From an uncultured Merdimonas sp. (lineage in GTDB: Bacteria > Bacillota > Clostridia > Lachnospirales > Lachnospiraceae), in contig CALWGE010000016.1 of the NCBI GenBank assembly GCA_944378225.1, positions 1 to 47,940 of the forward strand: DNA of 47,940 bases, written 5' to 3'. Positions 30,755 through 36,910 of this stretch are shown here, in pieces. The notes under the pieces were generated by a model. It did not search any database and had not been told where the DNA came from. It worked only from the letters and a program-made list of their open reading frames with translations. The position numbers and the translations under genes are program-made. The first letter of the stretch is position 1; each line of letters begins with the position of its first letter.

Positions 30755-32212
30755 TCAGAGATATCTGTCACTCAAAAAAGAAATTTCTCCATTGCTTTCA
30801 ATCAGACGCTGATACCAGAAAAAGGAGTCTTTCCGGATTCTGCGAAGTGTACCATGTCCCTGATCATCCTGATCCACATAAATAAAGCCATATCGCTTAC
30901 TCATTTCTGAGGTGGACGCACTGATGCAATCAATACATCCCCAATAGGTATATCCCAGAATGGGTACACCATCTTCCAGAGCCAGAGCCATCTGCCGAAC
31001 ATGTTCCCGAATATATGAAATTCTATAATCATCATGAACCGTATCTCCTTCCAGATAATCCAGAGTTCCCAGCCCATTTTCAGCCACAAAAAGCGGAAGT
31101 TTATATCTGCTGTACATTTGATTCAGTGCGTAACGCAACCCTACCGGATCTATCTGCCAGCCCCACGGAGTCTGCTCCAGATAAGGATTTTTTTCTCCCA
31201 CAAGCAGATTGGCCGATACTTTTTCCTTTTTTGCTCCTTCTGCACTGGTTACCAGAGAAGCATAGTAACTGAAGGATACATAGTCAACAGTATTTTCTTT
31301 CAGAATTTGTGCATCTCCCGGTTCCTCCTGAATCCTGATACCCTGTTTGTCCCATAAAGTACGAATTGAATATGGATATTCTCCAAATACCTGCACATCT
31401 GTATAAAACGCGTCCAGTTCTGTCTCTTTCAGGCACTGCAGGCAATCCTCAGGTCTGCAGGTGGCAGGGTATTTCAGATTTTTTGTGGTCATACATCCAA
31501 TCCGGAAATCCGGGTATTTTTCGTGAGCCAGTTTTGTAATCAGTGCAGAGGCAACAAACTGATGATGGAGCGCCTGATAACTGGCCTGCTTAAGATTCTC
31601 AGTATGTTCTTTAACAATACCTGCTCCTGTCAACGGAATATGCACTGTGGCGTCAATCTCATTGAAAGTTATCCAATAACGTACATCTGACTGAAACTCT
31701 GAAAAAAGTGTTTCCGCAAATTTCACAAAAAAATCTATGACCTTACGTTCTGTCCACCCGTTATAGGCAATCGTCAAATGAAGGGGCATTTCAAAATGAG
31801 AGAGTGTTATAACCGGTTCAATATGATATTTTTTCAATTCTTTTATCATGGAACGATAAAATTCGATTCCTTCAGGGTTAGGCTCGGGATCATCTCCATT
31901 TGGAAATATTCTCGACCACGAAACAGAAAAACGTAATGCTTTAAATCCCATTTCATGAAACATTTCAATATCTTCTTTATAACGATGATAAAAATCAATA
32001 CCTCTCCGTTTCGGGTACTTGCTGTCATCTGAATCTGCTGCTGCTTCCTGAATCTGTTCCCAGCTCCGTTCAAAACATCCGCCCTTTTTTCTGTCGCCTA
32101 AAGGGAAAATATCAGCAGTAGAAAGGCCTCTGCCTCCCTCTCTTGCGCCTCCTTCTACCTGGTTCGCCGCAAAAGCACCGCCCCACAAAAAATTCTCCGG
32201 AAATACCGCCAT
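30755..32212 (-). CDS. GH1 6-phospho-beta-glucosidase
   Basis: A glycoside hydrolase family 1 enzyme, 485 residues, that would cleave 6-phospho-beta-glucosides made by a PTS into glucose 6-phosphate and an aglycone or sugar. The acid/base Glu185 is in TFNEID (most relatives have TFNEIN), the nucleophile Glu378 in [23 protein letters not shown] near residue 440 carries the Ser-Lys-Tyr set that binds the 6-phosphate. N-terminal [14 protein letters not shown] is the family signature. The gene starts 4 nt after the PTS EIIBC stop, so substrate import and cleavage are coupled. Which beta-glucoside is used cannot be told from sequence. Confidence 0.93.
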
Positions 32213-32216
32213 GTTT

Positions 32217-33563
32217 TTATGCCTCCAGTTTTACATCCTCAAATTTGACAAAATGTGTTACAAGCATCGCCACAACAACAGAAATTACAATACCTGCAAG
32301 ATACAGAACGAACTTCTCTCCCAAAAAGAGTGCTGCTCCAGCTCCAGGTACTGGCCCAATGCCTGTAGCATAGATACGAAATGCCGCCATAAAAGCGCTT
32401 CCTGCCGCTCCGCCCGCAGCCGCACCTATAAACGGACGCTTCAAGATACCAAGAACTCCATATAAAGCCGGTTCTGTGGTTCCAATCAGAGCTGTAATAC
32501 CAGAAGAAAGAGAAAGGCCTTTGAATTCTTTGTTTTTTGAATCAAACGCTACCATCAAAGCAGCTCCGCTGACAGCTGCATTTGCTGATGCGCAAAGAGC
32601 CAAAAGAGGATCATATCCATTTGCTGCAAGACTCTGAAGTTCCACCGGCACAACTGCATGATGAAGTCCTGTAAATACCATAAAAGGATATACGGCTCCA
32701 AATACTGCTCCACCAAAAGCTCCTGTTTTATTATACAGACCAATGACTATATTTCCAATTATATCAGACAGTGCGTTTACTACCGGACCCACAACTACGA
32801 GCATCACAGGAGCAGTAATCACAATACAGATAAGCGGAGTAAATAAACCGGAAAAGCTTTTGGGAATTATTCTGCGGCACCCCTTCTCAATCAGGGACAG
32901 AATAAAAACACCCACAATAATCGGAAATACTGTTGATGAATAACTTACTATCGGAACTGTTAATCCAAAAACACTGCTGGCTTCTGTCATTGCCGTATAA
33001 GTGGGATGCAGCAGAATACAGGCAAGAACCGCAGCCAGTGTAGGCTTGCATCCGAATACTTTAGCTGATGAAAATGCAAGAAGTATGGGCAGAAAATAAA
33101 AAACCGCATCAGAAAACATCATCAGCATCGTATATGTATTTCCAGTCGAATCTACAACTCCACCAAAATTCAAAGCCAGAAGAATTCCTTTTAAAAGACC
33201 ACTGGCCGCAAGAGCAGGGAAAACCGGAATAAAAATACCAGCAATTCCGTTCAGTATCTTATTAACCAGCTTTTCTTCTGTTTTTCCATCATTTTTCACT
33301 TCCGAATCCGATGTTACCATCTGTGAAAACACCTGAAAAAGATCTTCCACTTCTTTTCCAATGATAACCTGTACCTGGCCACTGTTAACCACACAACCCT
33401 TTACACCTTCTATATGCTTCATTCCCTCTGTGTCGCATTTTTCAAGCTCATGCAGATCGAGCCGCAGACGGGTGAAACAATGAGATACTTTTCTGATATT
33501 TTCTATTCCTCCGGCAAGTTCTATAATGCGCTTTGACATCTCTTCAAAATTATTTTTTTTCAT
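32217..33563 (-). CDS. PTS beta-glucoside-type EIIBC permease (no EIIA)
   Basis: A phosphotransferase-system sugar transporter of the glucose/sucrose/beta-glucoside family, 448 residues. The EIIB domain (1-90) has the phosphorylated Cys29 in [13 protein letters not shown]. The EIIC domain (about 105-440) has about ten membrane segments and GITEPALYG-like [20 protein letters not shown]. It ends without an EIIA domain, which must come from another protein. AAGGAG sits 7 nt before the ATG. The partner GH1 gene suggests a beta-glucoside as substrate. Confidence 0.92.
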
Positions 33564-33582
33564 ACCGATTCTCCTTTTGTTT

Positions 33583-35747: not shown

Positions 35748-35771
35748 ACCTATTACACTCTTTTGATTTTC

Positions 35772-35800
35772 TTTTCATGAGGTGATTTTCATGCTATACT
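35772..35800 (+). promoter_or_regulatory. promoter of the AraC-relQ unit
   Basis: TATACT (35795-35800) preceded by TGC (extended -10) has TTTTCA (35772-35777) 17 bp upstream. The start codon of the AraC gene follows 33 nt later, with AGGAG at 35819-35823. Confidence 0.55.
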
Positions 35801-35833
35801 TAGAAAAATTTCAAAATCAGGAGATATCGTTGT

Positions 35834-36910
35834 ATGAAACTTGCCGAGGAACTGTACCGCATACCTGTGGCTCCAGAGCATCATCTGAAGATGACGTACG
35901 CTCAACTGAACGCCTGCGGAATGGATTTTGATTTTGTTTCTGTTTTGCAGGATGGAAAGGATTTTCACAAGATAACACGAGATATCTGTATTTCCTATCA
36001 GAAATTCCACAATGGACACTTAACCAACCTCTTTTTCTCACAAAAAACCCCTGTCCATTTGGATCTGGATGACTCAGAACTGATAAGTTATTATTCCGAC
36101 TACATTGAACTGAGATACATTTTATCCGGTCATCTGGAAGTAGAAATCGAAGGAGAAACGGCTCATTTTCTTGAAAATGAAATTTGCTTTATCAATTCCA
36201 TGGCGTATCACCGGGAATCTATCAGCAATTCCGAATGTCTTCTGGTCAATGTTTCCATCGATCGCAATGTATTTACAGAAGCCTTCCTCGGAAGTGTCAG
36301 TATGACGCCTTTACAACTGTTTCTTCGCAAAAATATCATAAAATACAGCGACCTGCAGCATTATCTGAAATTTACTCCTGGCGGTCAGGAGCAAAGCCTT
36401 CAGATTCAGAAATATCTGTTCCACATTATTACCGAAATAAGAGAAAAGCAGCCCGGATATATGGATATCAGCAAGGGCTATCTGATTCGTCTGATGGATG
36501 AATTGTCCTCCGGTTATCAGTACAATTTTTCCCGTCAGGAAAGTGCCCTGTATGCAGAAAAGCTTTTTGAATCCATAACAGAATTTATGCAGAATAATCT
36601 TGCATCCATACAAATGTCTGCACTGCGCAAAGCTTTTCATTTTCAACCAAATTATTTTAATAATCTAATCAAAAAGCAAACCGGTATGACTTACTCAGAA
36701 TACCTCGCTTATCTTCGAATTGAAAAAGCTAAATATTTATTGGAATCCTCCAGCCTAAATATCGAGGAAATCATGTGGATCATCGGTTACCACAACAAAG
36801 GTTTTTTTTATAAGAAATTCCAGGAAAGTACAGGCACAAGTCCTGCAAAATACCGGATAAAATCCAAAGTGAACACAAAATTAAAAAATCAGGAAGAAAC
36901 GGAGTCTTAG
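35834..36910 (+). CDS. AraC-family regulator with N-terminal cupin-like domain
   Basis: A 358-residue regulator. The N-terminal half holds a sugar/ligand-binding cupin-like region (about 80-145, ELRYILSGHLEVEIEGETAHFLENEICFI). The C-terminal AraC DNA-binding domain spans about 255-350 (ALRKAFHFQPNYFNNLIKKQTGMTYSEYLAYLRIEKAKYLLES, then IEEIMWIIGYHNKGFFYKKFQESTGTSPAKYR). It is divergent from the five-gene operon across 183 bp, the standard layout for a local activator. The next gene, relQ, starts 5 nt after its stop. The most likely inducer is the operon's own substrate. Confidence 0.9.
   Translation: MKLAEELYRIPVAPEHHLKMTYAQLNACGMDFDFVSVLQDGKDFHKITRDICISYQKFHNGHLTNLFFSQKTPVHLDLDDSELISYYSDYIELRYILSGHLEVEIEGETAHFLENEICFINSMAYHRESISNSECLLVNVSIDRNVFTEAFLGSVSMTPLQLFLRKNIIKYSDLQHYLKFTPGGQEQSLQIQKYLFHIITEIREKQPGYMDISKGYLIRLMDELSSGYQYNFSRQESALYAEKLFESITEFMQNNLASIQMSALRKAFHFQPNYFNNLIKKQTGMTYSEYLAYLRIEKAKYLLESSSLNIEEIMWIIGYHNKGFFYKKFQESTGTSPAKYRIKSKVNTKLKNQEETES

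What the first reader, a model, noticed from the sequence alone, without database searches (positions are those of the whole stretch)
30755..36910. Five-gene operon joining beta-glucoside PTS/GH1 with MBL hydrolase and two NTF2-like paralogues, under a divergent AraC
Seen: hydrolase, NTF2-like, NTF2-like, EIIBC and GH1 overlap or lie 2-20 nt apart, end at one terminator and face a divergent AraC gene. Known: GH1 with the Ser-Lys-Tyr phosphate motif plus EIIBC imports and splits 6-phospho-beta-glucosides. Neither MBL hydrolases nor SnoaL/NTF2 proteins belong to ordinary bgl operons. Inferred: the imported glucoside has a chemically demanding aglycone (for example lactone, ester or plant terpenoid/phenolic), which the NTF2-like pair and hydrolase convert after cleavage. 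This is the best candidate in the window for an undescribed system.
Basis: partly seen in the sequence, partly recalled or inferred. Interest (0 to 1): 0.72.

Follow-up and report, generated by a model that had tools for sequence, protein, structure and literature searches.

The report
Glucoside operon with paired NTF2 enzymes
A gut bacterium carries a conserved gene set that probably imports and splits a plant-type glucoside and adds a rare pair of partner enzymes, possibly to handle a vitamin-C-like part of the molecule; the chemistry has not been tested.

Summary
In detail: MBL hydrolase, two NTF2-like (SnoaL_4) proteins, EIIBC and GH1 form one tight operon ending in a strong terminator and facing a divergent AraC gene. 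It is a conserved system: nine loci (one cut by its contig end) in Lachnospiraceae- and Erysipelotrichaceae-type genomes share it, with a conserved operator-like element; three loci have a second copy before EIIBC-GH1. NTF2a and NTF2b are adjacent in 22 of 22 uncut loci. Among solved structures NTF2a is closest to the cofactor-free lyase LdpA; NTF2b, not NTF2a, keeps the histidine that is mutated in one LdpA structure, which suggests a heteromer. Related clusters use other transporters, some with GH3 and beta-phosphoglucomutase, so glucose is the likely glycone. New here: 22 of 24 pair-bearing genomes encode ascorbate-6-phosphate lactonase UlaG over its cut-off, against 18 of 200 Lachnospiraceae and 34 of 125 Erysipelotrichaceae-type genomes; in two lineages UlaG lies inside the cluster. 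I therefore favour an ascorbate-like sugar lactone as aglycone. The reaction of the NTF2 pair is unproven; a phenolic aglycone is the main rival.

The parts
30755..32212 (-). GH1 6-phospho-beta-glucosidase
   Evidence: PF00232 3.1e-122; PRK09852 610 bits against a cut-off of 623; TFNE, ENG and a Ser-Lys-Tyr stretch STSEMSKRY present (meaning of the motifs recalled)
32217..33563 (-). PTS EIIBC, beta-glucoside type, without EIIA
   Evidence: PF02378, PF00367, no PF00358; TIGR01995 403 bits, below its cut-off of 615; EIIB motif CFTRLR (meaning recalled)
33583..34254 (-). NTF2b, SnoaL-like, keeps the LdpA-type histidine (H87)
34271..34939 (-). NTF2a, SnoaL_4, LdpA-like fold without that histidine (L89)
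34932..35651 (-). MBL-fold metallo-hydrolase with the full two-metal ligand set
   Evidence: PF00753; H66 H68 D70 H71 H141 D162 H211 invariant in 13 of 13 aligned sequences, window included
35707..35759 (-). AraC operator-like element: ATAGGTAAC and ATATGTAAT half-sites 32 bp apart
   Evidence: conserved between AraC and MBL in the eight type A loci that show this region
35686..35713 (-). promoter-like site TCGAAA-16-TATAAT next to the second half-site
   Evidence: consensus scan only; the region gave 22 such sites against 18.7 in shuffles
35834..36910 (+). divergent AraC-family regulator
   Evidence: PF12833 7e-18; 49-86% identical in the seven other type A loci that show it
30711..30745 (-). 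intrinsic terminator

Best explanation
This is an AraC-controlled operon for a beta-glucoside whose aglycone is L-ascorbate or a closely related sugar lactone (for example 2-O-beta-D-glucosyl-L-ascorbate). EIIBC imports and phosphorylates the glucoside, borrowing an EIIA; GH1 releases glucose-6-phosphate and the aglycone. The MBL protein opens the lactone. The NTF2a/NTF2b heteromer, with NTF2b as the likely catalytic chain, does a cofactor-free C-C or C-O step on the opened beta-keto acid, most likely a decarboxylation to a pentulose. The carbon then joins the pentose-phosphate branch of the ula pathway (UlaE, UlaF). Shown by computation: gene set, conservation, shared operator-like element, adjacency of the pair, fold of NTF2a, intact metal site, co-occurrence with ulaG. 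Inferred: heteromer, substrate, order of steps, reaction.
Against: No chemistry was tested. The type A operon has no FGGY kinase, so a free pentulose or ascorbate would need a kinase not seen here; the rest of the genome was not searched for one. The operator core AATASGTAAC was not found in the ula stretches of pair-bearing genomes, so the ula genes need not be in the same regulon. In pair clusters B, L027, L028 and L030 I recognised no glycosidase. Type D loci have the pair with no MBL of this family and no EIIBC-GH1 in the stretch held (L032 has a 38% GH1 about 7 kb away). One pair-bearing genome (G1113) gave no UlaG but a UlaD; one (G1124) only a cut UlaG piece below the cut-off. A distant single NTF2 gene sits in a C-glycoside/PhlG-type cluster. 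UlaD is also missing from most UlaG genomes without the pair, so NTF2a/b is not simply the missing UlaD.
Confidence: 0.38

Rival explanations
1. The glucoside carries a phenolic aglycone (lignan, phenylpropanoid or flavonoid type). GH1 frees it, the MBL cuts an ester or lactone, and NTF2a/b acts like LdpA through a quinone-methide intermediate.
Against: UlaG over cut-off in 22 of 24 pair-bearing genomes and in 0 of 3 genomes with only distant NTF2 relatives, though G989 with a single nearer NTF2 gene has it; FGGY or PfkB sugar kinases in type B and C clusters and UlaE in type B; eight invariant Arg/Lys in NTF2b.
Confidence: 0.25
2. MBL and NTF2a/b act on ascorbate or its oxidation products (dehydroascorbate, diketogulonate) as an add-on to the ula pathway; the PTS/GH1 genes serve another beta-glucoside and are only co-regulated.
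For: The pair occurs without PTS/GH1 in the stretch held in 15 of 24 loci; in type D genomes it lies apart from the other genes, while the six type D ula loci examined in full (L096 to L101) carry UlaG, FGGY, c9, UlaE and UlaF.
Against: Operator-like elements on both halves in L025 and L029 and repeated linkage to glycosidases of two families, GH1 and GH3.
Confidence: 0.22
3. Ordinary bgl operon with unrelated passenger genes.
For: EIIBC and GH1 are standard families.
Against: Order kept between the window and L025/L029 although the proteins are only 46-70% identical, shared operator-like elements, and no triad-free EIIBC at E<=1e-100 in 299 genomes.
Confidence: 0.05

Closest known systems
bgl/asc-type beta-glucoside PTS plus GH1 6-phospho-beta-glucosidase (names recalled)
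   Same: EIIB, EIIC and GH1 with catalytic and phosphate-site motifs
   Different: Divergent AraC gene, no EIIA domain, three extra enzymes
LdpA, erythro-DGPD gamma-formaldehyde lyase (PDB 8abt to 8abw)
   Different: Two paralogues instead of one; NTF2a lacks the His97 equivalent; sugar-catabolic context, not lignin dimers
BaiE bile-acid 7-alpha-dehydratase
   Different: Lower similarity than LdpA; no bai family among the hits listed for the ten window proteins scanned
ula L-ascorbate pathway
   Same: UlaG, UlaE, UlaF and PTS genes in the window's own genome; UlaG/UlaE inside some related clusters
   Different: The window operon holds none of these genes; the best listed models for the MBL are B3-type, UlaG not among the 25 shown

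Membership tests
beta-glucoside PTS/GH1 operon | EIIB and EIIC of the glucose superfamily with EIIB cysteine | tested here: met
beta-glucoside PTS/GH1 operon | GH1 with both catalytic Glu and the Ser-Lys-Tyr phosphate motif | tested here: met
   motifs present at 182, 378 and 433; their meaning is recalled
beta-glucoside PTS/GH1 operon | hydrolysis of 6-phospho-beta-glucosides | not testable with these tools
   needs an assay
LdpA-type lyase | fold and near full-length similarity | tested here: met
   NTF2a only; NTF2b was not modelled and gave no profile hit to LdpA
LdpA-type lyase | His97 equivalent | tested here: inconclusive
   absent in NTF2a 20 of 20, present in NTF2b 21 of 21
LdpA-type lyase | deformylation of a diarylpropane | not testable with these tools
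   needs an assay
ula ascorbate operon | UlaG, UlaD, UlaE, UlaF in the same regulon or operon | tested here: not met
   none in the window operon; UlaG and UlaE are elsewhere in the genome, UlaD not found at E<=1e-10
MBL-fold hydrolase | HxHxDH plus further His, Asp, His metal ligands | tested here: met
   13 of 13 sequences

The most novel reading that the evidence does not exclude
A bacterial route for natural vitamin C glucosides: a PTS/GH1 (or ABC/GH3) front end, an MBL lactonase and a two-subunit, cofactor-free NTF2 enzyme that processes the unphosphorylated sugar lactone in parallel to the phosphorylated ula route.
Probability: 0.25. Interest if true: 0.8.

Novelty: new variant of a known kind. 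Interest (0 to 1): 0.6.

Why it matters
If right, it links gut bacteria to the fate of plant vitamin C conjugates and adds a heteromeric sugar-lactone enzyme to the NTF2 superfamily. Even if the substrate is another one, the conserved operator-like element, the adjacent pair and the ulaG association give a direct, testable route to the function of two proteins that matched no NCBIfam model.

Tried and rejected
Ordinary bgl operon: disfavoured because of conservation and shared operator-like elements. NTF2a/b as a straight replacement of UlaD: rejected, because most UlaG genomes taken as pair-free also lack UlaD (of those 16, one has a match of 180 bits or more); the unnamed c9 protein sits at most of those loci (15 of 17). 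A PF12680 search of the own genome found nothing. A weight matrix for the operator proved insensitive: diverged copies that look real score only 3 to 16 against 71 for the window, so its low scores elsewhere mean little. Literature: searches listed no paper that, by title or abstract start, describes this operon; (SnoaL, ascorbate, glucosidase) held 0 papers and (ascorbate kinase) 0 papers; most subscription journals are not held. No paper was read whole: of PMC11476836, PMC12997858, PMC11855784, PMC11323797, PMC11170127 and PMC3219644 I saw passages only. The fold list is dominated by NTF2 folds; families not listed are not excluded. The structure of NTF2b was never obtained: the queue was full at each try.

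Full report
Observation. There is one 8-nt overlap, then gaps of 16, 19 and 4 nt. NTF2b is best started at the GTG at 34254. A strong hairpin with a T-run follows GH1. The MBL protein keeps all seven metal ligands in 13 of 13 aligned sequences. EIIBC has no EIIA domain; the neighbouring sucrose-type EIIABC at 37757-39667 has one and could lend it (inference).

Distribution. NTF2a is rare: 4 of 392 genomes of the order at E<=1e-6, one of them only a partial distant match. NTF2b was found in 1 of 398 genomes of the phylum, the own genome. A profile of NTF2b found matches at E<=1e-5 in 8 of 397 genomes of the family: four carry the pair, four only more distant relatives. A scan of genome contigs gave 21 loci. 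With the window and L047/L048 there are 24 distinct pair-bearing loci.

Gene neighbourhoods (my own gene caller; many neighbours were named by eye or by similarity, only those cited were scanned). Type A, 9 loci: AraC facing MBL-NTF2a-NTF2b-EIIBC-GH1 (window, L013 to L016, L025, L026, L029, L033; L026 is cut by the contig end before NTF2a). Type B, 2 loci: FGGY kinase-DeoR-MBL-NTF2a-NTF2b-CoA-transferase, facing UlaG-c9-UlaE. Type C, 4 loci: L027, L028, L030, L031, with ABC, TRAP or Opp-type transporters, FGGY or (L028) PfkB kinase, MBL in three of four, GH3 and beta-phosphoglucomutase in L031, UlaG in L028. Type D, 7 loci: the pair without the other genes; three of them have another, UlaG-like MBL a few kb away and L032 a 38% GH1 about 7 kb away. 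Type E, 2 loci (L047, L048): AraC facing NTF2a-NTF2b-ABC-GH3-MBL, then proteins that by similarity are a PF10282-type lactonase and a beta-phosphoglucomutase. An MBL of this family is in the cluster in 15 of 24. In L024 and L026 NTF2a is cut off by the contig end; in the other 22 both paralogues are adjacent. L049 (G989) has a single NTF2 gene with GH3, MBL, a lactonase-like protein and beta-phosphoglucomutase, and looks like a one-gene form. A tree of NTF2a+b puts the six Lachnospiraceae-type A loci together (99%) and groups B with L027, L028 and L030 beside them (100%); L025 and L029 form a second type A clade.

Regulation. The AraC-MBL intergenic region holds a conserved element, AATAGGTAAC...AATAYGTAATCGAAAA, with half-sites 32 bp apart in the window. 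Its core AATASGTAAC occurs once in the window against 0.05 expected; over all loci held about five chance hits are expected, and a few of the hits look like chance (L026 at 4065, L032, L076). It is recognisable in L047, L048 and L049, whose AraC is 35-37% identical to the window's. A second copy precedes EIIBC in L025 and L026, and by eye a variant (AATAAGTAAC) in L029. So in these lineages both halves of the operon seem to be under the same control. The core was not found in the ula stretches of pair-bearing genomes.

Link to ascorbate. UlaG (NF008688) is over its cut-off in 12 of 12 pair-bearing genomes (the thirteenth genome there, G989, has a single NTF2 gene and also UlaG) and in 10 of 12, with one more cut at a contig end (G1124) and one without (G1113). 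The three genomes with only distant NTF2 relatives have none. Background: 18 of 200 Lachnospiraceae, two of which carry the pair, and 34 of 125 in the family of G1119, itself pair-bearing. Fisher tests: 13/14 against 16/198, p=4.6e-12; 9/10 against 33/124, p=1.2e-4. These treat genomes as independent, set some genomes of other families (G103, G127 and unnamed ones) against the Lachnospiraceae background, and assume that the other background genomes lack the pair, which I did not check one by one. By eye the pair-bearing genomes fall into roughly eight lineages. UlaE (NF009689) is over its cut-off in 13 of 13 (no background measured). The window's genome has UlaG, the ascorbate PTS genes, c9, UlaE and UlaF on two contigs; UlaD gave no match at E<=1e-10 there.

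Kinase logic. At 17 UlaG loci from 16 genomes taken as pair-free (not among the matches), 9 have the ascorbate PTS and 8 an FGGY kinase within the stretch fetched, none both (L079 counted on UlaA alone). Among the ula loci of pair-bearing genomes and G989 the same holds: 10 PTS, 9 FGGY (one of them G989), none both; L094 and L104 were too short to judge. At genome level it does not hold, since the genomes of L027, L030 and L031 have the PTS at ula and FGGY in the NTF2 cluster. I infer that this FGGY makes ascorbate-6-phosphate. Locus L066 resembles a type B locus without MBL, NTF2a/b and CoA-transferase, with UlaF and an ABC transporter besides, so the triad looks like an extension of an ascorbate-type locus.

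Mechanism. The glycone is probably glucose: GH1 with PTS in type A, GH3 with beta-phosphoglucomutase in L031 and L049. 2-O-beta-D-glucosyl-ascorbate is a natural, stable plant compound (PMC11855784, passages seen, abstract among them). I therefore commit to an ascorbate-type aglycone, with MBL as lactonase and NTF2a/b as cofactor-free decarboxylase or lyase. Everything after the sequence and co-occurrence facts is inference. The ula steps are as described in PMC3219644 (passages seen).

Against. Type A has no kinase in the operon; in some pair clusters I recognised no glycosidase; type D pairs stand alone; the distant relative in L052 lies beside a C-glycoside deglycosidase domain and a DAPG-hydrolase domain, which favours phenolics. 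Hence 0.38, not more.

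Noticed in passing
L056:10011-11057, L057:10669-11715; found at 15 of 17 pair-free UlaG loci: A 345-348 aa protein (c9; only weak FG-GAP matches below cut-off) sits in ula loci that mostly lack ulaD (L060 and L102 have both). UlaD at 180 bits or more was found in 5 of 41 genomes. It may be an unrelated replacement of the decarboxylase.
   Followed up: partly
L063 to L079, L096 to L101, L105 to L107: FGGY kinase and ascorbate PTS genes exclude each other at the UlaG loci examined; the kinase may be an ascorbate kinase. 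Some such loci carry GH31 (L063) or GH29-type (L065, L107) glycosidases.
   Followed up: partly
L052:6871-17180: A distant NTF2 gene lies in a cluster with a CGDB-AP_endonuc_2 fusion, three AP_endonuc_2 proteins and a DAPG-hydrolase domain protein.
   Followed up: partly
L049:7846-17579: A one-gene version of the system: single NTF2, MBL, GH3, lactonase-like protein, beta-phosphoglucomutase, ABC transporter and divergent AraC.
   Followed up: partly
L050:9375-10680: A second, more distant pair of adjacent NTF2 genes beside an ABC sugar transporter; both copies keep the LdpA-type histidine, and its genome has no UlaG.
   Followed up: partly
window 36916-41187: A small RelA/SpoT-type synthetase (YjbM-like) and a sucrose-type EIIABC with sucrose-6-phosphate hydrolase lie next door; the same neighbours recur in L013, L014 and L033.
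   Followed up: no
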